From Rhea pennata (taxonomy: Eukaryota; Chordata; Aves; Rheiformes; Rheidae), in NCBI RefSeq assembly GCF_028389875.1, contig NW_026907680.1:2604001-2668000 (forward strand): DNA of 64,000 bases, written 5' to 3'. The notes under the pieces were generated by a model. That model had not been told where the DNA came from and ran no database searches. It saw only the letters and a list, made by a program, of their open reading frames with translations. Made by a program: the position numbers and the translations under genes. Numbering within the stretch: the stretch's first letter is position 1; each line of letters starts with the position of its first letter. Positions 4,273-60,121 of this stretch are shown piece by piece.

Positions 4273-5411
4273 TCCATTCCTAGGCACCCCAGAGTGCTCT
4301 GCCCAGAAGGCAGTGCCAGGCGGGAGGAAGCCATCTTCAGAAGGTGGAGCACCTACTGAGTGGCTTGGGAATGAAGTGGACGAGAATGCCAGAGCAGTAA
4401 GTGTCACTGTTGGAGGCCCTTCTTCCGCCGGTGTGCATCCTGCAAAAGCCTTGTGCTATGGGCGCTGGCTCACAAGAGCCCTTCCCATGGGTTCACTGAG
4501 CCCTGCCCGACATCGCCCAGTCCTGCCTTCAAAGGCATCGGTGGTGAATGTAGTTTTGGAATGCACACGCTGTTGCACCTTGCTCTCTGTAAACACACCA
4601 GCAGAGCCTCTGGGGCCCTCCTGCTGGTGGCACTGGAAGTGCTGGGCCTTTCTGTGATAGAAAGTGAAGAGTTTCTGCTCAGCTCTGTCATAATTCAGAT
4701 GCCTGGTTCAAAGAGAATGGGATGTTCAGCCTTGCTGGGCTTCCCTTCAGGGTAAAAGGGTGCTGACAGGAAGGCTCCCGGGAAGGCTCAGAGCAGAGGC
4801 TGGGGAAGAACCTTCCCTTCTGCAAAGTGGAGCTGCCATAGCCCCCCCCTACCCCCTCCTGTCCTCCCTAGCAGGACTGCCCTGCACATTGCCCTAGAGT
4901 TTAGTGAGCTGCCTTCCCCTGTGCTTGCCTCCCTTGACTCCATGCTCTTCTGGATCAGCCTTTTGGCTCTTCCCTTGACAAAAGCCTGCCAGAACATTTA
5001 GCTCTTTGCCCATATTCCCCTGCAGCTGCTCTTGTGTGGAATGGAGGGGCTGCTGTGAGCAAAAGCAATGGGTGTTTCTACAGTTCTGAGAGGCAGCTTC
5101 TTCTCCGGAGCATGGAAACATGGGCTGCCCTTGCCAGGAGCAAGAGCCTTTACTTGGCAGCATCTCACCTCTCTTTCTCACCTTTGCAGATGAAAATACG
5201 CAGGGATTCAATCCCGACAGCCACTAAAGCAGCTTCGATTGTGTCCCTTGAACCTCTTCCAAGTATTTTTCCAACGTGAGTACTTTGCCTTGCTTCTTTC
5301 CCCCTGCCTAAGAAAGGCAGCAGCCTCTCCGCACAGGTTTGTTAGGGCTGCAGTGCCAGGGCTGGGGGAGGCTGCTCTGAAAGTGCTTTGGGAACAAGTC
5401 TTCCCAGCGGC

Positions 5412-6148
5412 TGGGTCCCTCTTCTAGTTAGATTCCCGGGGGCCATATGCCCAGGTTGGCAAGCCGGCACAAACTCACTGACACACACACACACACACAC
5501 ACAAACACTCTTTAGGAGCAAGCAGTTTATTAGTAGATACTTACGAACAGACCGACCCAATGGTAATCTCGAGGACCACCTCAATGCTTGTCCCAATCAT
5601 CTGCATGATGAGAGAGCGAGAATCGGCAGGTACAATCTTTTCGGATGTCCCCGAGGAGGCAACGTGGTCCTCTGTTGTGTAGCAGCCTCTCTCTCCTTCA
5701 GAAAAACTCCGGTATTTATGATTACTTGTGGTAGGCGGGAGTCCCGGCACCTGGGGCCAGCAAGTGCAGGGAGTCTAGCCCAACTCCACCCCGGTTGCAT
5801 AACCAGGCTATGATACTGCGCACGCATGCAGACTTATTTCGGGGGCCACATTTGGCTTTGGGGGTCGCTATTTCACTACTCTTCAGCTTCTGACCTTCAT
5901 GTTGACTGCTTCTCATGGTGATTCTGTAGCTGGAAGCCACCGAAGCTACATGTAACCAACCACTGTTCTTTCTCACAGATTCCCAAGACCTTGTCAGTTA
6001 CTTATTTGTATCCCGCTTAACACAGCGGTATTGTTCAGGCACTGAAAAGTTACAACACTAGACTATTCCCACCAAGTATCAGGTAGTACAGATACAAAAA
6101 GTTACAACACGGACCATTCCCATCAAGTGTCAGGTAGCAGGGATACAG
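5412..6148 (-). mobile_element. LTR retroelement fragment (LTR plus primer-site-like sequence)
   Basis: An insertion of about 735 bases splits intron sequence that is continuous in the paralogous introns (compare 22,370-22,400 and 23,965-23,990). On the minus strand it reads like an LTR: two tandem units of about 51 bases at 6,040-6,140 (U3-like), an AATAAA signal near 5,528, a GT microsatellite (U5-like), then a CCGGGAATC-containing stretch at about 5,428-5,454 that loosely resembles a tRNA-Gly primer site. No coding remnants and no clear target duplication were seen. The class was not determined. Confidence 0.55.
5481..5503 (+). repeat. (AC)n microsatellite
   Basis: About eleven AC dinucleotides inside the LTR-like insertion. 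Confidence 0.95.
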
Positions 6149-7959
6149 TCGCAGTGACCTGCATGCATGCTCTGCCTACATCTGGGCTCTGAGGGTGGGG
6201 AGAGGGTTCTGCAGAACTCTGTGCTGTCGTCCACCTGCTAAGGGCTTTGTGTGTAAATGCTTGATGCCTTTCTCCTTCTTTGACACTGGGTGCCCAGCAA
6301 CAACCTATTGCCCACCCCTGAACACAGAGTCTTTGGGGCCACAGAGCAGTCTTGTGTAGTTGGCAGGACAGCAGGTAATGGTGTGTTTCAGAGCCTGTCC
6401 TGGCAGATGACCCTGCTGCTCTCCTCACTGCCTGGAGAGAGTCTCCCTTGGGCTCCTGGAGCTCTCCTTCAGGCATGACGTGCAGCCCCAGGTGTTTTGA
6501 TGGGAGGTGATGCTCTGATGTGGCCCCAGTCAGTGGAAGCTCTGTGCTTCTGCTGCAGAATTGCCTTCTGCTGCAGGAGCAGGTGTGAAGCTGGTGAGGG
6601 CCAGGTGGGGACCCTACTCTCCCTGTGCTCATATCACCTCTCCGCGGTGTGTATTTGCAGGCCAGTGCCAGTCACCTCAGAGTGCTCTGCACAGAGTGCA
6701 GCAGCGGGCAGGAAGAAGGAACGGAGAGAAGCCCGAGCACTAGTGCATGTCCTCTGAGCGAGGACCGTCAGAGGTCTGGAGTGGTAAGTGCTCCTCATTG
6801 AGGCCCTTCATGTGCCAGCCTGCTCTCTGCCCAGGCCTTGTGCTATGGGCGCTGGCTGTACAAGAGCCCTGCTGGGCCCTGGAAGGCTTTGCGCAGGGCT
6901 TTGTTTTCAGAGATGCCAGCTGTGCTCTACTTCTGCAATGTATCTGCCTCTCCAGCGCTGTCTGTGAGCAACCCAACAAAGCCTCTGGGGCTCTCTGCTT
7001 GGTGGCTGTGGAACTGCAGGGCGTTTCCACGCTAGAAGATGGAGAGTTTCTCTTCAGCTGTGTGATGAGTAAGATCTTTGGTGTGAACAAGCAAGGGATG
7101 TTCAGCCTTGCTGGGCTTCCCTTCAGGGAAGAAGGGTGCTGACAGGAAGGCTCACAGGAAGAGTCAGGGAACAGGCCTTTCCCTTGCGGGAAAAGAGACC
7201 GGCTCTGGCCCCCACTGCACACCCCTGTCCTCCCTAGCAGGACGGCCTTGGCCTTTCTGCCGCAGGAGGGCACAGCCTGTTCCTTTCTGCCTCCTTCTCC
7301 AGGGGGAAGAAGAGCCATGGGCGGAGACAGGGACAAGCAGGAGAAAGAGCAGCAGCAGTGGCAGTGTCAGCGGCAGACCCGGTGGCAACAGAAGACAGAG
7401 CAGCAGTGGCAGGGGCAGTGGCAGCATCAGTGGCAGCCACAGTGCCGGCAGCAGCCCCACTGGCAGTCGCAGTGGGAGCCCCAGTGGCAGACACAGCGGC
7501 AGCCCCACCGGGAGCCCCAGTGGCACTGGGAAACCCACTGTCAGACAGAGCGACAGCCCCAGTGTCAGCAGCAGCCTCACTGGCAGTGGCAGTGGAAGCT
7601 CCAGCTGCAGGCACAGCGGCAGCTCCAGTGCCAGTGTCAGACAGAGCGGCAGCGGCAGTGGAAGCTCCAGTGGCGGGGACAGCAGCAGATCCACTGGCGG
7701 TGGCAGCAGCAGTGGAAGCCCCGGTGGCGGGCACAGCGGCAGCCCCAGGGGCAGGCGCAGTCGAAGACCACATGTCAGACAGAGGGGAAGCGGCAGTGGG
7801 AGCCCCGGGGGCAGCGGCGGTGGCCACAGCAGCAGCCACAACGGCGGCAGCAGCGGCAGCAGCAGCAGCAGCAGCAGCTCTGCTTGTGAGCCGCGCGAGC
7901 ACCCAGGAAGTTCTGGTGTGCTGAATTAAACCAGCTGCCCCAGGCCGGGTGGCTCTTGG

Positions 7960-13137: not shown

Positions 13138-13745
13138 CTGGAGGAAAAAGCCAGCCCAAGATGTCTTTCTGCCTTGCTTGCTTCTGGTAGGGATCAATCT
13201 TTTCAAACAAACCAAAACCAGAACCTCTCATTCCTCTCCATGTTATAGGCTCCCCAAATAAGAGCTACAGAAGGACCAAAGCACAGGGAATGGCTGGGCA
13301 ATAAAGTGCCAGAGGGTATTTGCTGCAGGAGGAGTGAGGCCTGTTGGGGTGAGAATGACCACATCTGAACTTTGCATGCACCGGGGCAGGCTGTGAGCTA
13401 ACAGCTCTTGGTCAGGAAGGAGAGGCAAGAGAGAGGTCGCTGAAAGCCGCATCTCCTTGCCGTGCAGAAGTGAGAAGAAGCCCAGCAGAAGTGCTTTGAA
13501 GAGGAAGAGAGAAGCCAAGCAAGGAGCCGCATGTGGCCCTGCCACAGGTTGACGGTGTGCTTTCAGCCCAAGGTGGGGGTGTGCTTCTGGAAGGACCAAG
13601 CGGGCAAAGGCTTTGTGGCTCCTGCCTCTGGCTGAGGAAGCTCCCAGGCCCCAGGCTGCTGGAAGAAGACCCTGTTGGGGCAATCAGTGCATTCTTTGCT
13701 GTTCTGCACCTACTTGCTGCTGTTCCAGCCTGTGCTAGAAAGACT

Positions 13746-16216: not shown

Positions 16217-19200
16217 ATGGCCCTCCCCCTGCGCGGCCAAGCCAGAGCGCCCGGCACGGACATGGAGCTCCGGGACGCTGGCCGCGCCACGCAGCGTGAG
16301 CAGCGGGTGCCCGTCATCCCCCCGCGGGGTAAGGCCTTCGCGACCTCCTTGCCCAGGATTGCTGTCGAGAGGCTGAGCGCCAAGATGGGCTGTAGATGCC
16401 CGGGGGCTTTGGGGAGCCTGGGCAGTCTGGGGGTGCCCCAAGGGTCCTCTGCTGATGGTGCCTTGTGGTGCAGGGGGCATGATGTGTCTTTGCCTTGCTT
16501 TGCAGTGGCCGTGCCCATCTGGGAGGGTGTCTCCAACTACATCCAGGAGAAGCTGGTGCTGAACAAGGTGGATGTGCCATCCTCTCCCTCCCCTCCCATA
16601 CCCATGCTGGCAGCAGCACTGACCCCTCGGGGCCATGGGCCGCAATAGTCCTGCCCCTCCTCTCCAAGCAGAAGCAACCTCCCTGCAGAAGCATGCTGCA
16701 AATGACAGCTGTTCCCCAGACCGACTTCTCCCAAAAGGGAGGTGCCCAATGTGCAGTGCAGCTGTGGTTGCTGGAAGGGTGGGAGGCTTTCTGGGCCCTC
16801 TCTGGAGATCCTGGCAGAGTGCAAGGCCAGAAAGGGAGCCGTTCTGGGAAAGCCTTTTCTTCGTGTGCTGGAGGGGCGGCAACGTTGCCTTTGGAGGCTG
16901 AGGAGGAGGGGGAGGAAACTATGGGGAATGGCCTTCTCAGGGAGTTCTCCAGGGCTTCCGCCAAGCTTTCCACAAGGCTCTGTCTTGCCCCTTTGCATGC
17001 CAGCCATGGGCAGGGCACCTAGCACTGTGGCCATGCTTGGAGAACAACTCTCTCTTTGTCTCCCATGCTTCTAAGGCTTCTCTCTACTTCTCTGGCTGCA
17101 GGATGTGAGAATTATTCCCCTTGGCACCTTCAGTGTTGCTACAAAACAAGTCGTTGCTGGCAAGAACGGTCCTCTGACTGTTCAGAGACCTGCATTTCGC
17201 CTCTCAAGCAACCTTGTGGATCTTCACGGCCTCAGCCACGAGGAGGCCTCTGTTGCTGGTAAGAAGGCAGACTAAAACCTCGGCTTCCCCTGGGGACATC
17301 GCGGGGCTGTGGCTCTCTGCTGTTTCCCAGGGGCTGTTAGAAATTGAGACTTGCTGCCCCGGGTGCTGAGCAGAGCTTCAGGGTGTTTTGATTATCACAA
17401 CATTATAATGCAGAATCCAACGAGAGTCTCTCGGTGTGTCTCTCTCTTGCACTGGCTCGAACGCGTGGCTCCATAGTGGGGCTTTTGTGGCTGCTGCTTC
17501 CAGTGCCGTGTAGTTGCCACTGTTGTTCCCTGTTGATGCCACAGCAGCCGTCTGCTCAAAAGGACAAGTCCTTCCTATTGCTTCCTAACACCGATGGATT
17601 AAGAGGCAGCGTGGAAGGCTGTTGTGCAGCCCATGTGTTTTCCTCCTCCTTTGGAGCCAGCGTGACATGGCACAGCTAAGGCTCGTCAAAGCATGGCCTG
17701 AGTGCCGGCACCATTCCTCTGTGCACTGCCTTCTGCTGGCAGCTGGCCCCCTTGCTGCTCTGCTTGGCCTGCCCTCCTGCCTCCCGCTCCCAGGAGGTGG
17801 CCAGGGCTTGCTCTTGGTGTCTGTGCAGGGAAGGAAGCCCTGCGGTAAACTTGGCCCAGGAGGCTGCAGAGTGCTTTGAATTTGGGTCAGGGAGGGCTGA
17901 CAGGAGCCTCCTGTGGGGGCTTTTGTGGGGGTTAAAGCAGAGAGCTCTGCAGCTCTGTGCTGCCGCAAGACCTTCAGGCGCCCAGCACTGTGTGGGAGCC
18001 TGCTGAAGGGCTCCGTCCGTGACTGGGCTGCTCTTTGCTTGTTGCCTAGGGCGCAGGAAAGCTGAGACCCTCAAGTACCCTCACGTAGCCGTGGCCATCT
18101 CTGTGCCTTGGAAAACAGTGGCGGCCTGCGTGGAGGAGACCGTGTACCTTCTGTCTTGCTGCCTGGCCAATGGGAAGAACGTGGCCCTTCTTTTCAAGGG
18201 CATTGGCGTGCTTCTCATTGAAGGCAAAGAGGTGACAATGTGGTTTTACAGAGGCTTTCTGCGCAGGCTGAATGCCTCCCCACAGCTGCTCAAAGCTCTT
18301 CTGGATGTAAGTCTGCCTTTTTCCACAGCTCTCCTTCTCACCCCTTTGCAAGCCTGGCCAAGTCCAAAGCAACCGCTTTCCCCCCACTGCCGGGTCCTGG
18401 GAGTTCTTTCCTGCTAGGCTTCCTCCAGAAGTCTTCCAGAAAGTCAGCCTTTCCTTGGGGTCTTTGTGTTAGGATCCCATTTGTCTCCAGGCCTCCTCTG
18501 GCCATGTTTGGGATTGTGGGGCAGTGCGTCCAACAGCTGCTCCTCAAGTTGCAGAAGACTCTCGGGGTGTGTCACAGACAAAGTCATTGCAAGCCAGGGC
18601 CTTTGCCCAGGTCTCCAGTGCAGCCGTGTCATTCAGCCTGGGCTTTCTGGTGCAGAAGGCCTCTGTTTGCCTCCCTTGACTTCTCCACTACGCAACAACT
18701 GCTCTCCTGCATCAGCCTCTTGGCTCTTGCCCTTGACAGAAGCCTGCTAGTGTTTCTGGCCATCTGCCTGTATTATTCCGCACCTGCTGGTCTGTAGAAT
18801 GGAGGTGGGGGTGGCTGTGAGCAAGAGCGAGGGGTGTTTCCCTCTTTCTGAGTGGCAGCTTCTTCTCTGATTAGTGGAAACATGGTCTGCCCTTGTGCAC
18901 AGCAAGGTCCTTTTCTTCGTAGCATCTCACCCATGTCTCTGCCCTTTGCAGATGCCAGAGATGAGGCATTCAGTTCTCGCAAGCACCCAAACAGCGGCTT
19001 CCCTGATCCATTCTGGCTCTCTCATTGTCTTTCCAACGTGAGTACTTTGGTTTGCTCCTTTCCACCTGAGTTCCTGGCTCACCCAAAGAGCAGCTCCTCA
19101 CTGCAGGTTTGGTCGAGGTGTGTTGCCAGAGCTAGTGAAGGCTGCTCAGGATGTGCTTGCAGAGCAAGTCTTCCGAGGAGTTGGATCCCTGTGTGCTGCA

Positions 19201-22200
19201 GCCATGCCCTGGCTTTGTTTGGGCTCTGTGTGGGGGTTCTGCTGAGCTCTGTGCTGGCTCCCACCTTGTGAAGGCCTTTGTTCCACTAGTGGCCCAGGAA
19301 TGGAGGCTGTTCTTTGCAGATGCTCTGCCCTGAGCTTGGGAGGGATTGCAAGGGCTGTGGAGGTCTAGATTAGAATTTCCTAAGAGGGTGGAAAGCTGGA
19401 GGAAAGGGGCCTTGTCTGATGTGCCTGCACAGGAGCCTGCTCAGGAGCTGTCAGACAGGCTGCAGTGTTGACCTGGAGGGTTTGCTTTGGAAAGCTGAGA
19501 AGGAGCTCTCTCCCCAGGGGTAGAGGGAAGGCCTGGAGCAGTGTGAGGAGGAAGCTGGTGGCCCTGCAGGCAGGCATGCTGGGTCCCTGCACTTCCTGAG
19601 GGAGTCCTGCAGGAGATGAGACCTGTCCTGCATATTCCCCTTTGGGAAAGGCTGCTCTTCCTAGCAGCTGGGCCATGTGTCTGTGCGCCCAGAATTCACA
19701 GAAGCAGCAAAGGACATGCGGGGCCCTTCCTTGCGAGTGGTGTCTTTTTCTGGTTTACAGGTATGTGCTTGAGAGTGCCCCTCGAAGACCATCTGTGGGA
19801 GCTGTGAAGCCCACGTGGGAAGAGGAGAAGGGACTAGATGTTGCCAGCAGCAAGGAAGGTAATGGAGTGGCTGATGCCTGGCTGGGCTTTGCACCTTCTC
19901 TTTTGTTGGTCCTTGGCAGGGCATTGGAGCCAAGGCTGCAGCACCGTGGCTCGCCTAGCATGAGGCACTAGAGGCAAGGCAGCTCAGCCCTGATGGGGAG
20001 TCGACAATCTGCTCACTTGTGCCAAGACTTCCTTCCACCTTCAAAGCAATTCGTTCTGCCCTTGCCTTCTGTGTTTCTCCTACACATTCCCAAAGCACAG
20101 CCTTTGGCTTGACTGTGTGTTTTCTTCCCTTCTGATTGCAGAGCATGTATCTGGCCAGTGCCTCCTCCAGCGAGAGAGGCAGCCTGAATCCAAAGTGGTG
20201 GCTACCAATGTGGAGGAAGGCACGGTGGAGGAAGAGCCTCAAGGCAGGTGAGACACTTGGGAATTTCCGGGAATGGCGGAGGGTGACCCTGTAGCCCTGT
20301 GTGTCTTGGAGGGTGATGTTTCCCTTGGACACAAGGTCCTGAGGAGCTCTGAATGCCTTTTAAGCTCTGCCACGAGGACTAGGCCTCCGTTGCTGGTTGG
20401 GCAAACAAGAGCAAGTGCCTGGCAGAGCCTGCTCTTGGCTTTCTGCCCCCGCTGCCTCTGCTTCCAGCTTCCAGACCTTTGGGCAACTCAATGTAATTGG
20501 TCCTTCGGGAAGAGGAGGGCCTTTTCCCCTAGCCCGTAGATGAAAGTAAGGAGAATGCTGCTCATCTGTGGAGAGCAGGGCTGGGTGTCTCAGGGCAATT
20601 TTGGAGGCTGAGGAAGAGTCTGCATGCCCTTGTCAGGCCTTGTGAGGAGCTAAGTGGAAAAGCTCAACTGGTGTGAGGTGCAAGAGGGGTGTGCAGGGAA
20701 TGCTGCTGGAGGGGAGGATGCCTTGGGTGAATATCTCCCCAAAGCTGTGGTGTTTCCCCTTGGGCAATGCCCTTCCTTTGACTGCCAGCAGCAAGGAGGA
20801 AGGAGGGTCATTTCCAGGCAGCAGTCAGGGGTGGCGAGCAGCAGGCTTGAGAGGGTGTGGCCATGGCTCAGGCAACCCTTAGAGGCAAGGACGAGTTGTT
20901 CGGGCACTTTGAAGAGGATGGGAAGGAGGGACATGAGTGCCTGAAGACGGAAGGACTGCAAGGGACAGAGCAGTTATTCCCGGTTCCCTTTCTGAAGCTT
21001 CCAAGAAAGCTTGTCCTTGGGGGCCACACCGCAGTGGCTACTGGAGTGCTCAGGACAGTGGGTAATGGTGTGTGCTGGAGCCTGTCCTTGGAGCTGACCC
21101 TGCTGCTCTCCTTGGTGCCTGGAGAAAAAGTCCTACTGTGGGCACCCAGAGCTTTCCCTCGGGCACGCTGTGCAGCCCTGGGTGTTTGGGTGGTGGAGAG
21201 TCTCTGTGTCACACTTCCCCACGGTGTGTATTTGCAGCATGCTGCCAGCAATTCAGCCTAGCTCTGCAAAGGAGGATTTAGTGGGCTGGAGGAAGCAGCT
21301 GCCAGAGGCCAGAGCGGGAGCTGGCGGGCCTGAGATTGGCTATCAGAATTCAAGAGAGGTAGGTGCTCCTGATGGAGGTCCTTCAATTGGCAGCTTGCTT
21401 TCTGCCAAAGCATCGTGGTGTGGGTGCTGGCTGGACAAGAGCCCTTCCCATGGGTTCCGCTGGGCCCTGCCTGACTGTCCCCGGGGTTTGCTGTCAAAGG
21501 CGCTGCTTGTGCTCTACTTCTGCAATGCATCTCTCATGATTCCTTGACTCTCCATTAACGTCTCCCAGCAGAGCCTCTGGGGCCCTCGCTCTAGTGGCCG
21601 TGGAACTGCTGGGCCTTTCTGCTATAGCAGATGGAGAGATTCTGTTCAGCGGTGTGATTATTCAGATGCTTGGTTCAAACAGGAAAGGGATGTTCAGCCT
21701 TGCTGGGCTTCCCTTCAGGGTAAAAGAGCACTGACAGGGAAGGCTCAGAGCAGAGGCTGAGAAAGAACCTTCCCTTCTGGGAAAACAGAGCTGCCGTAAC
21801 CCCCACTGCCCTCTCTCATCCTCCCTAGCAGGACTGCCCTGCACATTGCCCTAGAGTTTAGTGAGCTGCCTTCCCCTGCACTTGCCTGCCTTGACTTCCC
21901 AATGCTCTGCTGGATTAGCCTCTTTGTGCTTGCCCTGGACATAATCCTGCCAGAGCTTTTAGACTTTTGCCTATATTCTCCTACAGCTGCTCTTGTGTAG
22001 AATGGAGGGGCTGCTGTGAGCCACAATGATGGGTATTTCAGAGTTTCTGAGAGGCAGCTTCTTCTTTTCTGAGTAGTGGAAACTTTGGCTGCCTTTGTCA
22101 GCAGCAAGATTCTTTCCTTGGCAGCATCTCACCGGTGTTTCTCACCTTTGCAGATGCTGGAGATGAGGGACTCAGTCCTCGAAGCCAGCCAGAGGAGTGA

Positions 22201-25200
22201 GACTGAGGCCCCTTGTGCTCTTCCAAGTATTTTTCCAACGTGAGTACTTTGCCTTGCTTCTTTTCCCCTGACTGACGAAGGCAGCAGCCTCTCAGCACAG
22301 GTTTGATAGGGCTGCAGTGCCAGGGCTGGGGGAGGCTGTTCTGAAAGTGCTTTGGGAGCAAGACGTCCCAGCGGCTGCATCCCAGTGGCCTGCACGCATG
22401 CTCTGCCTTCATACAGGGTCTGTTGGAGGCCCTAAGCCAAGATTTATGCTGTCTCCCACCACGCAAGAGCTTTATTCTGGACTGCCTTGATGCCTTTCTC
22501 TGTCACTGGGTGCCCAGCAGCAATCCATTGCCCATCCCGGAACACAGAGTCCTTGGGGCCACGGGGCAGTGACTAATGTAGTCGGCAGCACAGCGCGTAA
22601 TGCTGTGCCTGGGAGCCTGTCCTGGCAGATGACCCTGCTGCTCGCCTCCCTGCATGGAGAGAAAATTTCACTGTGGTTGTGTCCAGAGCTCTCCTTCAGG
22701 CATGACGTGCAGCCCTGGGTGTTTTGTTAGGGGGTGATCCCCGTTCCTGTGGATGTGACCCCAGTCAGTGGGACCCACGTGCTTCTGCTACAGAACTGCC
22801 TTCTGCGGTAGAAGCAGGTGCCCAACTTGTCCGGCTGAAATGGAGACCCTACTCCCCCTGTGCTCATGCCACCTCCCCGCGGTGTGTATTTGCAGTCCAC
22901 CCCTAGGCACCCCAGAGTGCTCTGCCCAGAAGGCATTGCCAGGCGGGAGGAAGCCATCATCAGAAGGTGGAGCACCTACTGAGTGGCCTGGGAATGAAGT
23001 GGACGAGAATGCCAGAGCGGTAAGTGTCACTGCTGGGGGCCCTTCTTTTCCAGCTTGCTTCCTGCAAACTCCTTGTGCTATGGGCGCTGGCTTGCAAGAG
23101 CCCTTCCCATGGGTTCACTGAGCCCTGCCCAACATCGCCCAGTCCTGCCTTCAAAGGCGCCGGTGGTGAATGTAGTTGTGGAATGCACACGCTGTTGCAC
23201 CTTGCTCTCTGTGAACACACTAGCAGAGCCTCTGGGGCCCTCCTGCTGGTGGCACTGGAAGTGCTGGGCCTTTCTGTGATAGAAAGTGAAGAGCTTCTGC
23301 TCAGCTCTGTGATAATTCAGATGCTTCTTTCAAGCAGGAAAGGGATGTTCAACCTTTCTGGGCTTCCCTTCAGGGAAAAAGGGTGCTGACAGGAAGGCTT
23401 CCGGGAAGGCTCAGAGCAGAGGCTGGGGGAGAACCTTCCCTTCTGGAGAAGCTTCTGAGCTGGCTTCCCCTGCGCTTGCCTCCCTTGATGTCTCCGTTCT
23501 GTCCTGGATCAGCCTTTTGGCTCTTCCCTGGACAAAAGCCTGCCAGATCATTTAGCTCTTTGCCCATATTCCCCTGCAGCTGCTCTTTTGTGGAATGGAG
23601 GGGCTGCTGTGAGCAAGAGCAAAGGGTCAACGGCTGTTTCTGCAATTCTGAGAGGCAGCTTCTTCTCTGAAGCATGGAAACATGGGCTGCCCTTGCCAGC
23701 AGCAAGAGCCTTTCCTTGGAAGCATCTCACCTCTCTTTCTCACCTTTGCAGATGAAAATACACAGGGATTCAATCCTGACAGCCACTAAAGCAGCTCCGA
23801 TTGTGTCCACTGCACCTCTTCCAAACATGTTCCTAAGGTGAGTACTTTCCCTTCCTTCTTTCCCCTCTCCCTGACAAAGGCAGCAGCCTCTCCGCACAGG
23901 TTTGTTAGGGCTGCATTGCCAGGGCTGGGGCAGGCTGCTCTGAAAGTGCTTTGGGAGCAAAAATTCCAAGCGGCTGGGTCCCAGTGACCTGCATGCATGC
24001 TCTGCTTACATCTGGGCTCTGTGGGTGGGGAGAGGGTTCTGCAGAGCTCTGTGCTGCCTCCCACTATGCAGGAGCTTAATGCTTGACTGTCTTGATGCCT
24101 TTGTCCTTCTTCAACACTGGGTGCCCAGCAACAACCTATTGCCCATCCCTGAACACAGAGTGTTCAGGTCTTATGTAGCTGACAGGACAGCAGGTAATGC
24201 TGTGCCTTGGAGCCTGTCCTGGCAGATGACCCTGCTGCTCTCCTCACTGCCTGGAGAGAGTCTCCCTTAGGCTCCTGGAGCTCTCCTTCAGGCATGACGT
24301 GCAGCCCCAGGTGTTTTGGTGGGAGGTGGTGCTCTGATGTGGCCGCAGTCAGTGGGAGCCCTGTGCTTCTGCTGCAGAATTGCCTTCTGCTGCAGGAGCA
24401 GGTGTGAAGCTGGTGAGGGCCAGGTGGGGACCCTACTCTCCCTGTGCTCATATCACCTCTCCGCGGTGTGTATTTGCAGGCCAGTGCCAGTCACCTTAGA
24501 GTGCTTTGCACAGAGTGCAGCAGCAGCGGGCAGGAAGAAGGAACGGAGAGAAGCCCAAGCACTAGCTGCATGTCCTCTGAGCGAGGGCCGTCAGAGGTCT
24601 GGCGTGGTAAGTGCTCCTCATTGAGTCAGGCCCTTCATGTGCCAGCCTGCTTTTTGCCCAGGCCTTGTGCTATGGGCGCTGGCTGTACAAGAGCCCTTCC
24701 CATGGGCTCTGCTGAACCTTGCAAGACTTGGCCCGGGGCTTGCCTTCACAGGCACCGCTTGTGCTCCAGGTTTGCAATATAGCTCTTGCTGCTGCGCCCT
24801 CCTTGAACACACCAGCAGAGGCACCGGGGTCCCGTTTTTGATTGCCTCTGAACTGCAGAGCCTTTCTGCGATAGAAAATTCAGTTTCTGCTCAGTTGAGT
24901 GATTATTGAGATGCTGGGTGCAAATGAGAACGGGATGTTCAGTGTGACTGGTCTTTCCTTCAGGGCAGTAGGGTGTTTGCAGGAAGGCGCATGGGAAGGG
25001 TCAGAGCAGAGCCTGAGAAATAATTTTCCCTTCTGCGAAAAGAGACCTGCTGTAACCCCCACTGCCCCCTCCTGTCCTCCCTAGCAGGACTGCCCTGCAC
25101 ATTGCCCTTAATCTTAGTCAGCGGCCCTCCCCTGCGCTGCCCTCCCTCAGTCTCTCCCTTAGGCAAGAACTGCTTTCCTGGATCAGCCTCTTGGCTCTTG

Positions 25201-28200
25201 CCCTTGACAAAAGCCTGCCAGAGCTTTTCCCCATTTGCCTGTATGTCCAGGGAGCAGCTATTGTGTAGAATGGAGGGGTTGCAGTGAGCAAGAGAGAAGG
25301 TTGTTTCTGCTGTTCTGAGAAGCAGCTTCTTCTCTGAACAGTGCAAACATTGGCTGCCCTTGTGAGCAGCAAGATCCTCTTCTTGGCAGCATCTCACCTG
25401 TGTTTCTCCCCTGTGCAGATGCTGGAGATGAGAGACTCGATCCTTGCAGCCACCAAAGCCCTCGATGTCCAGGCCCGTACTCCCCGCCACCATATGTTTC
25501 CAACGTGAGTATATTTGTTGGCTCCCTAGCCTCCAGTTTAGCAAGGGAGCATCTTCTCAGCACGGGTTTGTTAGGGCTGCAGTGCCAGGGCTGGTGGAGG
25601 CACTCTGAAAGTGCTTTGGGAGCAAGACTTCCCAGCGACAGCGTCCCTGTGACCTACGGGCATGCTCTGCCTTCATGTGGGCTTTGTGGGGGGCTTTGGC
25701 CAACTCTGTGCTGGTTCCCACCACACAAGGGCTTTATTCTGGGCTGCCTTCATGCCTTTCTCCTTCTCTGTTGCTGGGTGCCCAGCAGCAATCCATTGCC
25801 CATCCCTGAACACCGAGTCCTTGGGGCCACGGAGCAGTGGCTAATGCAGTTGGCAGGACGCAGGTAATGGTGTGAGTTGGAGGCTGTCCTTGTAGGGGAC
25901 CCTGCTGCTCTCCTTGCTGCCTGGAGAGAAAGTCTTGCTGTGGGCACCCGGAGCTCTCCAGCGGGCACGTTGTGCAGCTGTGGGTGTTTTGGCGGGAGGT
26001 GATTTCCGTGTCTGTGGATGTGATCCCCATCAGTGGAACCCCCGTGCTGCTGCTGCAGAACTGCCTTCTGCTGCAGAGGCAGGTGCCCCCCCTTGGGAGC
26101 GCTGCGTGGAGTCCAAACTCCCCAGCTTCCCCGGGCTCATGCCACCTCCCTGGTGCCTATTCGCAGGATGTTTTCCACCACCCCAGAGTGTTTTGCCAAA
26201 CGGCCGGCACCAGGCGCCTGGGAACAACCGCCACGTGCTAGAGTGCGAGCTGTGTGGGCTGTGAATGAAAGCGCTCCGAAGGCAAGACAGGTAGGTGCTC
26301 CTCCCTGAGCTCCTTTGTCTGCAGAAGCATTCTTCTCTGGGACAAGAGCCCTTCCCATGGGCTCTGCTGAGCCCTGGCTGACTTGGCCCAGGGCTTGCCT
26401 TCAAAGGCACTGCTTGGGCTCTAGTTTTGCAATATAGCTCTTGCTGCTGCTCCCTCCTTGAACACTCCAGCAGAGCCCCTGGGGCCCTCTCTTTTTTTCT
26501 GGCCATGGTAGTGCTGGGGTTTTCAGTGAGAGACCATGGAGAGTTTCTGCTCAGCTGTGTGATTATTGAGATGCTTGGTGTGGATGAGAAGGGGATGTTC
26601 AGCGTGGCTGGTCTTCCCTTCAGGGCAATAGGGTGCTGGCAGGAAGGCTCAGGAGAAAGGTCACAAAGCCTGGGACATGTTGCAGTGCCCCTTGCTCTTC
26701 TGCCGCTGGGGCTGCGGAGCCCCTGCCTGCAGCAGCCATTGTCTGGTGGGGTGCCCCAGGCCAGGTCAGAGCCAGGGGCCTGATGATTGCCAAGGTCCTG
26801 CAGTCCCCGGATGCTGGTGAGAAGCATGTGGAGAGCAGCGGAGTGGACTTGGAAGTGGGGCACATTGCACAGTGTGGAGTTGTCTTGCAGGTGCAGGAGG
26901 GTGCTGAGAATCTGGTTGAAGAAAAGCCCAGTATTCAGAAGATTGTCCGATACCAGCTGGGAGAAGACAAGCAAGTGACCCTGAAGGTCTACTTCTCCTG
27001 CCTAGAGGAAGAGGAGGAAGGGCTGGACAGTCAAGAGGGGCCTTGCAAGACAGGGCAGGTATGTGGCAGCTCCAGGAGAAGCCTGGCAGAACTGAGGGGC
27101 AGTGAGGTAGCAAGGGGTGCCACTTGTAATCCCGGAGCCACTGTGCTGCCTAGAGCGTGCTGTGACTTTTCCTGACATGAGATTTACGTGGCTTAAAGCT
27201 TGTCACTAAGTCCCTCCCTGCAGCCCCCAGCAAATGCCCAGCACTGCTGTGGAGCTGAAGGGCTGTGGCTGCAAATGGGAGCGGGGTTGAGGGAGTAGAG
27301 GAGGAGATAAGCAGAAGGGCTCTGAGGCCGAGTGAGAGAGACAAGGTGTCAGTGCGGCTGCAGCCCCATTGCCCCATGAGCAAGCCACAGGGCTGGCCTG
27401 GGCTCAGCCTTGCCTTCCAGCCAAGGGGCAGCTGTTGAGTGCTGAGAATGGCCTCCAACAGTGGCACCTGCAAGATCTGAGCAGCTGAGCGCAAAGGGAT
27501 GCTTCCAGCGTTGGTGTGCCCCTTTGCAAAGCTCTCCCTGACTGCTGAAGCCAAGACGACACAGGTACCCGCCAGTCCTGGCACCAGCAGCCTCAGCCAC
27601 AGGCTGATGAGCTGTGTCCAAACAAGCTCCCATGTCTCATGACGGTGAGGCTGGCAACACCCTCAGAAGCTCCCGCAAACATCCCCGGCCCTCACGAGTC
27701 TGCAGTCTTACTGGGCTTTCTGGCAGGGCAGAACACAGCCTGTTCTTTCTGCCTCCTTGTGCAGGGGGAAGAAGAGCCGTGTGCGGAGACACAGGCAGGC
27801 AGAAAAAAGAGCAGCAGCAGTGGCAAAGAGCCCAGCAGAGCCAGTTTTAGCAGAAGACGCAGCAGCAGTGGCAGGGGCAGTATCAGCGGCAGTGTCAGCG
27901 GGAGACCCAGAGGCAGCGGCAGTGGAAGCCCCACTGCAAAAGAGAACGGCAGCCCCAGTGTCAGTAGCAGGCAGCGTGGCAGTGGCAGTGGGAGCCCCGG
28001 TGGCAGACAGAGCGGCAGCCCCAGTGTCAGCGGCAGGGGCAGTGGAAGCCCCAGTGTCAGACCAAGTGGCAGCCCCAGTGCCAGTGCAGGACAGAGTGGC
28101 AGTGGCACTGGAAGCCCCACTGTCAGAGACAGCGGCAGCCCCAGTGTCAATGGCAGTGGCACTGGAAGCCCCACTGTCAGACCAAGTGGCAGCGGCAGTG

Positions 28201-28619
28201 GCAGTGCCGGACACAGCGGCAGCGGAACTGGAAGCCCCAGTGGCAGACGCAGCAGCAGATCCACTGGCGGTGGCAGCGTCACTGGGAGCCCCAGTGGCGG
28301 GCACAGCGGCAGCCCAAGTGCCAGCGGCAAACACAGCGGCAGTGACAGTGGGAGCTGCAATGTTGGACACAGCGAGAAACCCGCTCGTAGCAGCAGTGGC
28401 AGTGGAAGCTCCAATGCTGGACACAATGGCAGCCCCACTGGCAGTGGCAGTGGCACACGAAGACCCAGTGTCAGACAGAGCATCAACGGCAGTGGGAGCC
28501 CCAGGGGCAGCGGCAGTGGCCACAGCAGCAGCCACAACGGCGGCAGCGGTGGCAGCAGCAGCAGCAGCACTGCTTGTGAGCCACGCGAGCACCCAGGAAG
28601 TTCTCTGCAGCTGAATTAA
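16217..28619 (+). CDS. CCDC81-like HU-domain protein with tandem exon modules and a Ser/Gly-repeat tail
   Basis: Sixteen coding exons join in one frame (about 913 codons): 16,217-16,328; 16,506-16,567; 17,102-17,258; 18,050-18,306; 18,952-19,037; 19,761-19,858; 20,142-20,247; 21,238-21,358; 22,154-22,239; 22,896-23,019; 23,752-23,837; 24,480-24,606; 25,419-25,504; 26,167-26,290; 26,804-27,058; 27,765-28,619. All phases agree. Exons 2-3 give a first HU fold (IWEGVSNYIQEKL, then PLGTF, VQRPAF and DLHGL). Exon 4 gives a second (VAACVEETVYLL, FKGIGVLLIEGKEV, FYRGFL). Both align with human CCDC81, a centrosomal HU-fold protein, and exon 5 matches its next segment. The coiled-coil half of human CCDC81 is not seen. 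Instead there are three in-frame A-C exon pairs, an acidic exon and a Ser/Gly tail. The second in-frame ATG (16,262) could also start. The acceptor of exon 15 is weak. Family assignment is confident; the exact 3' exon chain is inferred. Confidence 0.82.
22154..26290 (+). repeat. Three tandem copies of a two-exon module within the CCDC81-like gene
   Basis: Each module has an A exon (86 nt, phase 0 to 2, starting ATG..G and usually ending FPT) and a C exon (124 or 127 nt, phase 2 to 0, with an ECxA motif). Copies are 22,154-23,019, 23,752-24,606 and 25,419-26,290. The ancestral pair is probably exon 5 with exon 8 (18,952 and 21,238), which have two further exons between them. Introns are also alike: GGATGACCCTGCTGCTC-type and CAGCATCTCAC-type stretches recur in each. 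Because the module is phase-symmetric, any number of copies keeps the frame. The right-hand gene copy has one A-C pair, and the left copy shows at least C-A-C. Confidence 0.85.
27810..28570 (+). repeat. 18-base / 6-residue coding repeat (Ser/Gly-rich tail)
   Basis: Within the terminal exon the sequence is built from imperfect 18-base units coding for variants of GSGSPS, with occasional Arg, Thr, Val or His. The unit length is a multiple of three and lacks TAA/TAG/TGA in nearly all frames, so long open frames appear in all three + frames and on the minus strand. Only the Ser/Gly frame agrees with the phase of the preceding exon. The homologous exon has about 208 codons at 7,303-7,929 and only 38 at 56,612-56,728. 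Confidence 0.9.
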
Positions 28620-29815: not shown

Positions 29816-30839
29816 GGTTCTGCTTGCAGACTGCGGCTCACGAAGTACTTGAGGCCAGGGTTCCGAGAGCTGCAGCCCGCAGTGGGAGAAGAGGCCTTTG
29901 CTGTCTTTGGGCTCATTCCTCAGCTCTGTGCTTGCGTCCTATTTTCTGCCAGATTTTTCTGCTCTTGCACCTCTCATCCTTGAGGGGACGACAAATGGAA
30001 CAAGCCTGCCCTTCAAAGGTAGAACTCTGAGAGACAAAAAGAGGTTGCTCTTGCAAACTAAGCAGCAAGCGGAGGGAGCCAGAGCTCCAGTGCTGGGAAA
30101 CACGAGGCATTAGACTGATCTCATCCGAAGCTGGCGTCCTTTGATGGCTTTGCCATGGATGCCGAGGGAGTGAAGAGGCTTAGGCCAACAGCTTAGCAGA
30201 GCAGGAGCAGAGAGCACTGGCTCCAATCACATGGTGTTTCAGCACAGGCTGCCTCAGCAGCAAGTAGGCACAGAACAGCAAAGAATGCAATGATTGCCCC
30301 AACAGGGTCTTCTTCCAGCAGCCTGGGGCCTGGGAGCTTCGTCAGCCAGAGGCAGGAGCCACAAAGCCTTTGCCTGCTTGGTCCTTCCAGAAGCGCACCC
30401 CCACCTTGGGCTGAAAGCACACCGTCAACCTGTGGCAGGGCCACATGCGGCTCCTTGCTTGGCTTCTCTCTTCCTCTTCAAAGCACTTTTGCTGGCCTTC
30501 TTCTCACCTCTGCAGGGCAAGGAGATTCGGCTTTCAGCGACCTCTCTCTTGCCTCTCCTTCCTGACCAAGAGCTGTTAGCTCACAGCCTGCCCCGGTCTA
30601 TGCAAAGTTCAGATGTGGTCATTTACTCCCCAAGAGGCCTTACTCCTCCTGCAGCAAATACCCTCTGGCACTTTATTGCCCAGCCATTCCCTGTGCATTG
30701 ATCCTTCTGTAGCTCTTATTTGGGGAGCCTATAACATGGAGAGGAATGAGTGGTTCTGGTTTCGGTTTGTTTGAAAAGATTGATCCCTACCAGAAGCAAG
30801 CAAGGCAGAAAGACATCTTGGGCTGGCTTTTTTCTCCAG
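29816..30839. other. Stretch without a recognised gene
   Basis: 29,816-30,214 links the CR1 tail to the inverted-repeat arm. Part of it (29,800-29,850) resembles 13,780-13,830 in inverted orientation. 30,215-30,839 is arm sequence upstream of the unidentified gene's first visible exon. The overlapping open frames here show no support. Confidence 0.5.
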
Positions 30840-32494
30840 ACCTTGTTTGTCACAGCAGAGAGTCAGCTGCCCGTATGTGAGCATGATTTGGATTGGAAAA
30901 GGGTGCGGGAACTCCTCATCACAAAGGCCTTAAGCCATACTGGGGAGCCAAAGTCCTCAGAGAAAGCCCACAATTTTCTCAGCCTGGTCTTCAAGTATGG
31001 CCTCAGAAGGCAAGTGGGCCTCTTGGCATGCTGGGCTGCCACCTTCAGCAGGAGCTCTCCTGGAGGGGCTGAGTTCTTGCTTTTCTCTTTACTCATACAA
31101 TTTCAAGAAGAAAACAAGAACTCCCCGGCAGTGTCCCCGGCCACACTGAGACAACTGTGACTCCTAAGGGCACCATTTGCACAAGCACATGGGAAGAGTC
31201 AGCTTGCCTGCTGTCAGAGAAGGAAAGCTCCTCAGATCCATTGGAGATGTGGGCCTTCCACTTGTGTATGCAGTGTGCTTCCCAGGCTCCGACAAAGGAA
31301 AGGTATGGGGGGAGGAGGAGGGGAAACTGGTTCCTCTGGAGTCCCTGCTTTGTGACAGGACCTATTTCAAAGCACGGAGCTCATCAGAGAGGTCCTTTTT
31401 GCTCCAGGATCTTTTCCTCACCCAGCACTGTGATTTGTTTCTCTACAGCTTTTAACACTTGCTGGCGTGTCCACAAACCTATTGCCTAACACTAGCATTT
31501 TTGAATGTCATCCCATGCTGACTGGCAGCAATGTCATTTATTGGCTCCTGAGACTTTATCTGATTGTGATCGATGCAGGAAGACAGTGAGGGTCTTCTTG
31601 GTTGGTTTACATAGTCCTGTAGAGGAGCTTCCCTGGAAAAAAGGATGTTTTGACAGGGCAAGTGGTACCTGTGTCTGTGTTTGTGTATGCATATACATCT
31701 CCATCGAGAAGGCTCAGCAGAAAGCGGCTAAAAGATTTGTCCTCCATAAAACTGCCTTTCTGAGCTGTGAAGGAAGATGGGATGCTTGGAGACAGAGAGA
31801 CCTGCAGGGGTCCAAGTTGGCCAGTGGTGTAAGTAGATATGGTCGGTGGGTTTTCTGAAAAAGTTTGGTGCATATCACAGAATTACAGAGTGGGTAAGGT
31901 TGGAAGGGACCTCAGGGGATCATCTAGTCCAACCTCCCTGCTCAGGCAGGGTCACCTAGACCATGTTAGACAGGGTTGCATCCGGGCAGGGTTTGAATCT
32001 CCCCAGAAAAGGAGACTCCACAATGTCTCTGGGAAACCTCTCCCAGTGCTCGGTCACTCTCACAGGAAAGAAATTCCTCCTCATATTGAGGCGGAGCTTC
32101 TGCTGGTTCAGTTTGTGCCCGTTGCCTCTTGTCCTGTTGCGTGGCACTAGTGAAAAGAGTTCGGCCCCATCCCTTTGATGGGGATATCCAGTGGAATTTC
32201 CTTCACTCTCTTTCAAGAGCCCGTTGAGTGATAATCAAACACAAAAAATCAAATGTCTTCCTCTGTGTGGGCCCCTTTCATTTTGATTTCCTCTGAGGGC
32301 TTTACATCTCTCTACATTTTTGCACTGTCCAATCCCATGTACTATTTATTTCCACAAACACTTTGGGCTATGTGTTCTGGAATACTAACACTGGATTTTT
32401 TTTCCCCCTCTCCCAGGTGCAGGTGAAGCTGGAAGTACATGTGTTGGCCTCCACACATCTACTGAAGGATCTTCAGCAAATGCCACTTTCCAGG
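30840..32494 (+). CDS. Exons of an unidentified gene (right arm copy)
   Basis: Exons 30,840-30,994, 31,218-31,302 and 32,417-32,494 have AG acceptors and GT donors. Intron phases fit (0/2, 2/0, 0/0), giving 106 open codons. The mirror copy in the other arm has the same exon lengths and differs by scattered substitutions. A 111-codon open frame at 32,792-33,127, preceded by a CTGCAG acceptor and containing a hydrophobic run of about 35 residues, is a possible next exon. There is no recognisable domain, start codon or stop, so this is an internal part of a larger gene or a decayed copy. The CR1 at 31,876-32,215 lies in the intron. Confidence 0.5.
31876..32215 (-). mobile_element. CR1 LINE 3' end, arm copy
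   Basis: Reverse-complement partner of 11,755-12,101 with the same end points. It starts at a CACAGAATTACAG-like inverted CR1 terminus. Confidence 0.92.
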
Positions 32495-33842: not shown

Positions 33843-33845
33843 GTT

Positions 33846-56611: not shown

Positions 56612-59600
56612 TTAATTCAGCTTCAGAGAACTTCCTGGGTGCTCGCGTGGCTCACAAGTAGTGCTGGTGCTGCTGCTGCTGCTCCTGCTGCTACTTGGCT
56701 GTGTCTCTGCACACAGCTCTTCTAACCCCTGGGAAGAAGGTAGAAATGAACAGGCTGTGTTCTGCCCCACTAGAAAGGCTGAGAAAGTCTGCAGAGTAGT
56801 GCAGGCTAGTGTTCGCTGATGGTTTTGCTATATTGACTGTCATGGGACTTGAGACCTTGTTTGGACACTGCTAATCTGTTGTGAACCAAGACTGGGGGGG
56901 TACCTGTGTCCAGTATTCAGCAGTCAAGGAGAGCTTTGCAAAGGGGCACACCAACACTGGAAGCATCCCCTTGCGCTCAGCTACTCAGATTTTGCAGGTG
57001 CCACTGTTGGAGGCCATTCTCAGCACTCAACAGCTGCCCCCTTGGCTGGAAGGCAAGGCTGAGCCCAGGCCAGCCCTGTGGCTTGCTCATGGGGCAATGG
57101 GGTTGCACCTTGTCTCTCTCGCTCGGCCTCAGAGCCCTCCTGCTTCTCTCCTCCCCTACTCCCTCAACCCCGCTCCCATTTGCAGAAACAGCCCTTCAGC
57201 TCCACAGCAGTGCTGGGCTTTTGCTGGGGGCTGCGGAGAGGGACTTAGTGACAGGCTTTAAGCCACATCAAGCCCATGTCAGGAAAAGTCACAGCACGCT
57301 CTAGGCAGCACAGTGGCTCCGGGATTACAAGTGGCACCCCTTGCTGCCTCACTGCCCCTCAGTTCTGCCAGGCTTCTCCTGGAGCTGCCACATACCTGCC
57401 CTGTCTTGCAAGGCCCCTCTTGACTGTCCAGTCCTTCCTCCTCTTCCTCTAGGCAGGAGAAGTAGACCTTCAGGGTCACTTGCTTGTCTTCTCCCAGCTG
57501 GTATTGGATGATCTTTTGAATACTGGGCTTTTCTTCAGCCAGATTCTCAGCACCCTCCTGCACCTGCAAGACAACTCCACACTGTGCAATGTGCCCCACT
57601 TCCAAGTCCACTCCGCTGCTCTCCACATGTTCCTCATCAGCATCTGGAGACTGCAGGACCTCGGCAATCACCAGGCCCCTGGCTCTGGCTTGGCCTGGGC
57701 CCCCCGCCGGACAACGGCTGCTGCAGGCAGGGACTCTGCAGCCCCAGCTGCAGAAGAGCAAGGGGCTCCACAACATTCCCCAGCTACATCACAGCCTGAG
57801 CAGGGTTCCCTGCCTTTCCCATGGGATCAGTCTCCGATGTCTCCTGCTGCCAAATAAATTGTGGAGGGCATTGTCACTTCCAGGAGCAGCAAGTGCGGGC
57901 TTCAACATGGTGGTTTTCTTGAAGGGAAGGTTACTTACACTCTCCTTTGAACCTTGTTTTGAACCTTCCTGTCAGCATCCTTTTGCCCCAAAGGAAAGCT
58001 GAACAAGGCTGAATATCCCTTTCTTGTTTGCACCAAGCATCTCAATAATCACGCAGCTAAGCAGAAACTGCCCATCTTCTATCACAGAAAGAACCAGAAA
58101 TTCCACTGCCACCAGAAAGAGGACCCCAGTGGCTCTACAGGCGTGTTCATGGAGAGTGCAGCACTGAGAGATGCATTGTAAAACTAGAGCACCGCCTTTG
58201 AACTCAAAGCCCTGGACAAAGTCAGCCAGGGCTCAAAGAAGGGCACTGGAAGGGCTCTTGTACAACCAGCAACCACAGGACAATGCATTTGCAGAATGCA
58301 GGCTAGCACAAGAAGGACCCCAGTCAGGAACACTTACCACTCCTGTGTTCTGATGGCCTACATTCACAGGCTGTGTAGCACGTACCCTAGCTTCTGGACG
58401 TGGTTTCTTTCCACCTGCTGCTGCATTCTGTGCAGAGCACTGTGAGGAGACTGGGAATGGACTGCAAATATACACACGGGGAGGTGGTATGAGCACAGGG
58501 GGAGTAGGATCTCCACTCCCCCCTCACAAGCTGGGCACCTGCTTCTGCAGCAGAAGGCAGTGCTGCAGCAGAAGCACAGGGGTTCCACTGACTGCAGGTA
58601 CATCAACAGCTGTGAAGACTACCCCCAAATAAAACACTCAGGGCTGCACATCATGCCCGAAAGAGAGCTCTAAGCTCGCCCACAGCATGACTTTCTCTCC
58701 ATGCAGTGAGGATAGAAGCAGGGTCAGCTACAGGACAGGCTCCAACTCATACCACTACCCCTGTCCTGCCACATGCATTAGCCACTGCTCCATGGCCCCA
58801 AAGACTCTGTGTTCAGGGATGGGCAATGGATGGTTGCTGGGCTCCCAGTGTCAAAGAAGGAGAAAGGCATCAAGGCAGTCAAGCACAAAGCCTTTGGCAG
58901 CTGGGAGCCAGCACAGAGCTCTGAAGAACCCTTCCCCACAGACAGAGCCCATATGAAGGCGGAGCATGCGTGCAGGTCACTGGGACTCAGCCGCTGGGAA
59001 GCCTTGCTCCCAAAGCACTTTCAGAGCAGCCTGCCCCAGCCCTGGCAATGCAGCCCTAACCAACCTGTGCTGGGTGGCTGCTCCCTTCATCAGGCAGGGG
59101 GAAAGAAGCAAGGCAAAGTACTCACGTTGGAAAAATACTTGGAAGAGGAGTAGAGGACAAAAAAGGAGCCGCTCTAGTGGCTGTGAACATTGAGTCCCTC
59201 ATCACCTTCATCTGCAAAGGTGAGAAAGAGAGGTGAGATGCTGCCAAGGAAAGGATCTTGCTGCTCACAAGGGCAGCCCATGTTTCCATGCTTCAGAGAA
59301 GAAGCTGCCTCTCAGAATTGCAGAAACAACCCTTGCTCTTGCTCTGCAGCCCCTCCATTCTACACAACAACAGCTGTGGGGGAATAGGGGAGAATGGCTA
59401 AAAGCTCTGGCAGGCTTTTGTCGAGGGCAAGAGCCGAGAGTCTGAGTTAAGAGAGCAGTTCCTGCCTATAGAGAATTCAAGGGAGGGAAGCCCAGGGGAA
59501 GGCAGCTCACTAAACTCTAGGGAAATGTGTCGGTCAGCCTGCTAGGGAGGATGAGAGAGAGCAGTGGGGGCTGCAATACATCTGTTTTACCAGGAGGAAA

Positions 59601-60121
59601 CGTTTTTCTCAGTCCCTGCGCTCATCCTTTCCCTAAACCTTCCTGTCAGCACCCTTTTGCTCTGAAAGGCAGTTGAGCAAGGCTGAACATCCCTTTCTTG
59701 TTCAGACCAAGCATCTGAATAATCACACAGCTGAGCAAAAACTCTCCATCTCGTATTACAGAAAGGCTCAGTGCTTCCATGGCCACCAGAAAGAGCAGTG
59801 TGTTCATGGAGAGTGCAGGAGTTACAGATATATTGTAAAACTAGTGCACAAGTGGCATTTCTGAAAGCAAAGCCCCAGGGAAAGTCCGACAAGGCTAAGC
59901 AGAACCCATGGGAAGGGCCCTTCTACAGCCAGTGCCCAGAGCACAATGCTTTGGCAGAAAGCAAGCTGGCAAAAGAAGGACCTCCATCAGGAGCACCTAC
60001 CTCTGTTGACTTCTGATGGCCATGTACAGGCCACGCAGCTGCTGCTCGAGCTTCTGGCATTTGCGTCCTCCTGCCCAGTAATTCCTTCTTCGCAGAATGT
60101 GAGTGAATTCCTGGAAGCATG
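56612..60121 (-). pseudogene. CCDC81-like gene copy, 5'-truncated, all remaining exons open (right copy)
   Basis: Minus-strand exons are 60,121-60,001 (121 nt), 59,211-59,126 (A, 86), 58,461-58,338 (C, 124), 57,650-57,396 (255, acidic) and 56,728-56,612 (117, terminal). Lengths and phases match exons 8, A, C, 15 and 16 of the intact gene, and every one is open. There is one A-C pair instead of three. The terminal exon has lost the whole Ser/Gly repeat: after GLEELCAETQ it has about a dozen mostly Ser codons and then the conserved EPREHPGSSLKLN end. Similarity to the intact copy extends upstream only to about 61,477 (counterpart near 20,345), so the exons for the HU domains and exons 5-7 are absent. 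Truncation makes it formally a pseudogene, but the C-terminal frame appears to have been maintained. Confidence 0.75.

What the first reader, a model, noticed from the sequence alone, without database searches (positions are those of the whole stretch)
16217..28619. Bird CCDC81-like gene that kept the HU pair but rebuilt its C-terminal half
The first four exons align with the tandem HU domains of CCDC81 and the next exon with its following segment. The human coiled-coil half is not found. In its place are A-C exon pairs, an acidic exon and a Ser/Gly repeat tail, all phase-compatible and open over about 913 codons. HU-fold proteins are uncommon in vertebrates, and from memory this clade is expanded in birds; a version with a modular, length-variable tail looks under-described.
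Basis: partly seen in the sequence, partly recalled or inferred. Interest (0 to 1): 0.75.

Follow-up and report, generated by a model that had tools for sequence, protein, structure and literature searches.

The report
Bird HU-domain genes with exon cassettes
In a flightless bird, probably the lesser rhea, a two-domain protein head related to a cilium protein has been copied at least two hundred times, and the copy studied here carries a variable-length tail built from repeated exon pairs whose job is unknown.

Summary
The predicted gene holds up, and it is one member of a very large array. Its head passes both Pfam CCDC81 HU models; the coiled-coil half of CCDC81 is not found in the window. 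The repeated C exons are copies of the exon after HU2 (C0), which aligns with CCDC81, and a kiwi protein has the same HU2-C0-X1-X2-A order. C-A pairs (86 + 121/124/127 nt, always a multiple of three) lie in 1.6 kb units; three other genes carry 3, 2 and 1 units. The 1-unit gene joins an A1-type to a C2-type exon, as loss of a unit by exchange inside introns would leave. Between units exons differ about twice as much as introns; between copies the HU exons show dN/dS 0.24-0.52. The genome (probably Rhea pennata) holds at least 214 stop-free HU2 stretches, 207 of them on four contigs. Expression and function are untested. The bird expansion of this clade is published (recalled); the cassette tail and these arrays look new.

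The parts
16217..16391 (+). Exon E1, start codon and first part of HU1
   Evidence: weak donor GTAGAT
16506..16567 (+). Exon E2, HU1
   Evidence: donor GTGGAT here, GTGGGT or GTGAGT in the four other copies read
17102..17258 (+). Exon E3, HU1
18050..18306 (+). Exon E4, HU2 domain
18952..19037 (+). Exon C0, CCDC81-like segment after HU2; founder type of the C exons
19761..19858 (+). Exon X1
20142..20247 (+). Exon X2
21238..21358 (+). Cassette exon A1 (121 nt)
22154..22239 (+). Cassette exon C1 (86 nt)
22896..23019 (+). Cassette exon A2 (124 nt)
23752..23837 (+). Cassette exon C2 (86 nt)
24480..24606 (+). Cassette exon A3 (127 nt)
25419..25504 (+). Cassette exon C3 (86 nt)
26167..26290 (+). Cassette exon A4 (124 nt)
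26891..27058 (+). Acidic exon (56 codons)
27765..28619 (+). Last exon, Ser/Gly repeat tail and stop codon; its openness is not evidence of coding
4273..7929 (+). Partial copy 1 without HU exons: A2-type exon (4273-4396), C exon (5190-5275), frameshifted A3-type exon (6661-6783), tail (7303-7929)
57396..60121 (-). Partial copy 3 without HU exons: A1-type exon (60001-60121), C exon (59126-59211), A exon (58338-58461), acidic exon (57396-57563), all open

Best explanation
A protein-coding member of the bird-expanded CCDC81-like family. Its head of two HU domains is probably a protein-binding module, as in the ciliary inner-junction protein CCDC81. Its long tail, probably disordered, includes cassette exon pairs (C then A). 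SHOWN: the open exon structure; the HU head; constraint on HU exons between subfamilies; kept frame and splice sites of the cassettes in four genes; different unit numbers; the arrays. INFERRED: units change in number by unequal exchange inside the similar introns, harmless to the frame because each C+A pair is a multiple of three. Exon types stay distinct, probably because selection favours different cassettes while exchange keeps introns alike. The head anchors the protein to one kind of partner and the variable tail meets a changing one. The likeliest setting is genetic conflict, either in the male germ line (relatives of the head sit in sperm and ciliary microtubules) or in recognition of non-self.
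For: Open, spliced model. Both HU Pfam models above cut-off. HU2 model's top PDB match is CCDC81 of sperm doublets. Ostrich and kiwi relatives, kiwi with the same exon order. Exons more divergent than introns between units, also outside CpG-like sites and for transversions, repeated in a second, closely related gene. 15 of 15 cassette exons found in three other genes are open with the same splice sites. A1-C2 recombinant unit. HU dN/dS 0.24-0.52 in ten pairs of five copies. At least 214 HU2 stretches without stops.
Against: No transcript or protein evidence. The scored HU2 places are the best 150 of 449 and 64 of 555 candidates, so decayed copies may be missing from the count and the lack of stops is partly selected. 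Codon positions 1, 2 and 3 of the cassettes differ equally between units (0.457, 0.445, 0.474) and 25 of 66 same-amino-acid fourfold sites differ; pooled dN/dS is 0.68-0.69, so amino-acid selection is not shown directly. Between gene copies cassettes are only weakly constrained (0.63; exon against flank p 0.08). A1-c3A1 differs more in the exon (0.256) than in the flank (0.153). Both other gene-like copies in the window lack HU exons and one is frameshifted. Longest identical intron runs do not exceed shuffles (p 0.065 to 0.37), though clustering of identity does. The germ-line or conflict role rests on analogy.
Confidence: 0.65

Rival explanations
1. A passively amplified segmental duplication. 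The genes are dead or dying and look open because the copies are young.
For: C143 copies are 98.0-100% identical over 3.26 kb (30 loci, 27 distinct). Partial copies without HU exons, one frameshifted. Cassette dN/dS 0.63 and exon against flank not significant. No expression data.
Against: HU dN/dS 0.24-0.52 reaches across C143, C141 and C140 subfamilies with dS up to about 0.7. Frame kept in cassettes that differ by about 45%. Related predicted proteins in ostrich and kiwi.
Confidence: 0.15
2. Direct positive selection on amino acids drove the cassettes apart soon after duplication; introns evolved neutrally and were not homogenised.
For: Exon divergence 0.45/0.43 against intron 0.22, none of 1122 and 1180 intron windows as high. 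Some pairs exceed 1 (C1-c3C 2.59, C2-c1C 1.59).
Against: Third positions differ as much as first and second; most pairwise dN/dS values are below 1.
Confidence: 0.25
3. The C-A units are alternative cassettes, only some of which enter any one transcript, so one gene makes many tails.
For: Every pair is a multiple of three with phases 0-2-0, so any unit can be skipped in frame.
Against: Nothing tests it here. The same phases are needed for a simple tandem array.
Confidence: 0.25

Closest known systems
CCDC81 (PF14908 + PF18289 head, coiled-coil half)
   Same: HU pair; C0 aligns with the segment after HU2, X1 and X2 more weakly
   Different: The coiled-coil half of seven reptile CCDC81 records has no match in the window better than E 0.7. 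The best match to Anolis CCDC81 in the genome is elsewhere, C1:208.39 Mb, 56% over HU2
Bird CCDC81-like predictions (Struthio P0024, Apteryx P0036, Coturnix P0029)
   Same: HU head (HU2 only in the kiwi record) and C0; kiwi also X1, X2 and an A exon
   Different: The kiwi record has one A exon and no repeated C; the records are 223-452 aa and may be partial. Coturnix is no closer on HU2 (36%) than CCDC81 proteins are
Microtubule inner proteins: CCDC81 of sea urchin sperm doublets (8snb), Tetrahymena IJ34/CCDC81b
   Same: HU2 fold: probability 1.00, rmsd 0.9 over 49 columns, 39% identity, Foldseek E 0.024
   Different: Cellular location of the bird gene is unknown; cassette tails were not looked for in these proteins
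CCDC81 clade expansion in birds, Burroughs et al. 2017 (title seen in reference lists; text not held, content recalled)
   Same: A lineage-specific bird expansion, suggested to act in conflicts
   Different: I could not check whether it describes cassette tails or arrays

Membership tests
CCDC81 HU clade | HU-CCDC81_euk_1 domain (PF14908) | tested here: met
   32.3 bits, cut-off 26.1, profile positions 27-88 of 89
CCDC81 HU clade | HU-CCDC81_euk_2 domain (PF18289) next to it | tested here: met
   67.8 bits, cut-off 26.1
CCDC81 HU clade | HU fold of domain 2 | tested here: met
   pLDDT 79.7; top match CCDC81, then IHF/HU and other CCDC81 chains among the first six, but no match at E 0.001 or better
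Orthologue of CCDC81 | Coiled-coil C-terminal half | tested here: not met
   Not found in the window; better match to CCDC81 elsewhere in the genome
Bird CCDC81-like family | Closer to bird paralogues than to CCDC81 | tested here: met
   HU2 exon: Struthio 54%, Apteryx 58%, the 15 other non-bird rows 29-36%; Coturnix only 36%, so met for palaeognaths alone
Bird CCDC81-like family | Multi-copy expansion | tested here: met
   At least 214 HU2 stretches
DNA-binding HU/IHF proteins | DNA binding | not testable with these tools
   Only weak fold matches to IHF and HU
Ciliary microtubule inner proteins | Location at the doublet inner junction | not testable with these tools
   Family relation only
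Ampliconic germ-line gene families | Many near-identical copies in arrays, some inverted | tested here: met
   59 HU2 places on C143 on both strands, median spacing 67.8 kb; 30 loci 98.0-100% identical
Ampliconic germ-line gene families | Germ-line expression | not testable with these tools
   No transcript data

The most novel reading that the evidence does not exclude
A vertebrate repertoire family: hundreds of HU-headed adaptors fill much of several bird contigs and differ by exon cassettes swapped through exchange inside their introns, so that a constant head displays a changing tail, either as a recognition system against invaders or as the product of a drive-and-suppression contest in the germ line.
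Probability: 0.2. Interest if true: 0.88.

Novelty: new variant of a known kind. Interest (0 to 1): 0.62.

Why it matters
It is a concrete case in which a constrained domain head and a cassette-built tail evolve by different rules within one gene. One bird genome holds at least 214 stop-free HU2 stretches, 207 of them on four contigs. If the copies are expressed, the suggestion that bird CCDC81-like proteins act in biological conflict (recalled from Burroughs et al. 2017) becomes directly testable. The arrays could also explain why database proteins of this family are so often short or chimeric (inference).

Tried and rejected
Stop-free tail as evidence of coding: rejected. CpG decay as the cause of exon divergence: rejected, since sites outside CpG-like contexts and transversions show it too. 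Simple dead array: unlikely given HU dN/dS. Direct positive selection as sole cause: not supported by codon positions. HU exons in the two other window copies: none found. PF14908 against the own genome: 0 matches at E 0.001, probably because HU1 is split over exons. Protein search limited to residues 38-220: none of 858 candidates. The 8snb hit at 3e-75 comes from a profile with four reptile CCDC81 rows, so it does not by itself place the window protein. Paper searches that listed no account of bird CCDC81 arrays; the 2017 paper is not held. Left undone because the genome machine stayed busy: counts of C140-type HU2 and of A3 cassettes. Dropped before counts: c1A3 from dN/dS; three C exons of C141_836 and C143_3630 from the between-copy count, as their partner in the window was uncertain; the first 110 alignment columns from the window test.

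Full report
1. Check of the observation. The spliced model runs from the ATG at 16217 to the stop at 28619 in 16 exons, with AG and GT at all 15 introns, fitting phases and 905 codons. Residues 137-208 match HU-CCDC81_euk_2 (67.8 bits, cut-off 26.1) and residues 63-124 match HU-CCDC81_euk_1 (32.3 bits, cut-off 26.1). The weakest join is E1-E2: donor GTAGAT, and 7 residues that reptile CCDC81 lacks. The Ser/Gly exon has few stops in several frames on both strands, so its openness proves nothing.

2. Where the window lies. It is C143:2604001-2668000 of a 1.27 Gb genome in 180 contigs. The end of that protein joins the end of E3 to X2, which supports those splice sites, although the protein looks chimeric.

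3. Relatives. The third protein search listed 29 hits; the most similar to the window protein were Struthio CCDC81-like (58% over 76% of the query) and Apteryx CCDC81-like (64% over 42%). The kiwi protein runs HU2-C0-X1-X2-A in the same order. Reptile CCDC81 aligns through HU1, HU2 and C0, more weakly X1 and X2; by tblastn only the HU exons give significant hits and the coiled-coil half gives none. The HU2 exon folds at pLDDT 79.7. Its best Foldseek match is CCDC81 of sea urchin sperm doublets (probability 1.00, rmsd 0.9 over 49 columns, E 0.024), followed by IHF and further CCDC81 and HU chains; none of 254 matches reaches E 0.001. Papers, passages only: CCDC81b is an axonemal inner-junction protein in Tetrahymena (PMC11961760); IJ34, a CCDC81 homologue, stabilises CFAP52 (PMC10105768); a chicken CCDC81-like LOC was among the top genes raised in broiler embryos (PMC10863267); a goose CCDC81-like LOC in a hypothalamus table has P 0.088 (PMC11450866).

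4. The cassettes. The tail carries A1-C1-A2-C2-A3-C3-A4 in 1.6 kb units. All six C exons in the window, C0 and the partial copies included, are 86 nt and open; seven of eight A exons are 121, 124 or 127 nt and open; the eighth, in partial copy 1, is frameshifted. Three further genes were read. C143_2329 has three units, C141_836 two and C143_3630 one; the 15 A and C exons found there are all open with the same splice sites (they were sought by tblastn at E 1e-5, so an eroded exon could be missed). The single unit of C143_3630 has an A1-type A exon (9 of 121 differences, against 57 to A2) and a C2-type C exon (11 of 86, against 33 to C1), with introns equally near both units (0.144, 0.142). Loss of one unit by exchange inside introns would leave this. 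The acidic exon was not found in the stretches read from C141_836 or C143_3630, so module content varies too.

5. Exons and introns follow different rules. Between the three units of the window gene the A block differs at 0.451 and the C block at 0.430; intron windows of the same length average 0.225 and 0.223, and none of 1122 and none of 1180 overlapping windows reaches the exon value (first 110 columns left out). In finer 40-column windows some intron stretches reach 0.49 and the unalignable start up to 0.54. Non-CpG sites and transversions agree, and C143_2329, a close relative of the window gene, repeats the pattern. In C141_836 the A exons differ (0.446) but the two C exons are alike (0.105). 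Codon positions differ equally, and pooled dN/dS is 0.68-0.69, so the pattern is better read as intron exchange with distinct cassettes retained than as plain amino-acid selection. Between gene copies cassettes are weakly constrained: dN/dS 0.63 over 14 comparisons, exon 73/1537 against flank 411/6941, p 0.08. In five in-window comparisons exons differ at 60/622 and flanks at 422/2923, p 0.001, with A1-c3A1 against the trend.

6. The family in the genome. An HU2 search scored 150 of 449 candidates: 59 places on C143, 20 on C141 and, by subtraction, 71 on C140, none with a stop, two of them clearly partial. An Anolis CCDC81 search scored 64 of 555 candidates, all on other contigs, 57 on C23, none with a stop; the best, C1:208.39 Mb at 56%, is probably canonical CCDC81. 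That makes at least 214, though scored places are the best candidates and decayed copies may be missed. HU exons E2-E4 give dN/dS 0.24 (window-C141), 0.44 and 0.50 (window-C140 types) and 0.31 (between C140 types); ten pairs of five copies span 0.24-0.52. The acidic exon has 147 matches among 150 scored, none with a stop: 85 on C143, 34 on C140, 28 on C10 and none on C141. The C10 set lies in tandem at mostly about 3.57 kb; the 4.5 kb read holds an A exon and the acidic exon, and no HU exon was found.

7. Reading and verdict. The HU head is kept and the tail is rebuilt by cassette. The likeliest role is a scaffold whose HU pair binds a conserved partner, perhaps at sperm or ciliary microtubules, while the tail meets a changing one, as in genetic conflict. 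The structure is well supported; the role is inference. The bird expansion of the clade is, as I recall, already published (Burroughs et al. 2017, text not held), so this is a new variant of a known kind.

Noticed in passing
window 10685-13744 and 30234-33289: Inverted repeat arms of about 3.06 kb, 95% identical, on either side of the gene; another inverted pair is 1-2691 / 8080-10725.
   Followed up: no
window 33290-39960: Provirus-like element: end repeats of about 555 bases, 92% identical, and a long gag-like ORF at 34339-35730 (the name is my reading of the ORF). It begins where one inverted repeat arm ends. Described only.
   Followed up: no
C10:25155307-25256313 and L040: 28 matches to the acidic exon at mostly about 3.57 kb spacing; the unit read also holds an A exon and an Arg-rich piece like the end of the kiwi protein.
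   Followed up: partly
C23:227818-1007487: 57 HU2 exons, many about 13.6 kb apart, 43-45% identical to Anolis CCDC81: another array of the family.
   Followed up: no
C143:3532720-3648568: Sub-array of the same genes with a shorter period of about 19.5 kb.
   Followed up: partly
window 54692-54971: Minisatellite with a 51-base unit, 5 copies, 94% matches.
   Followed up: no
database protein P0008 (Rhea pennata LOC134154651): Predicted protein with Pfam PF01699 and PF03733 and CCDC81-like exons at its end; probably a chimeric gene model.
   Followed up: no
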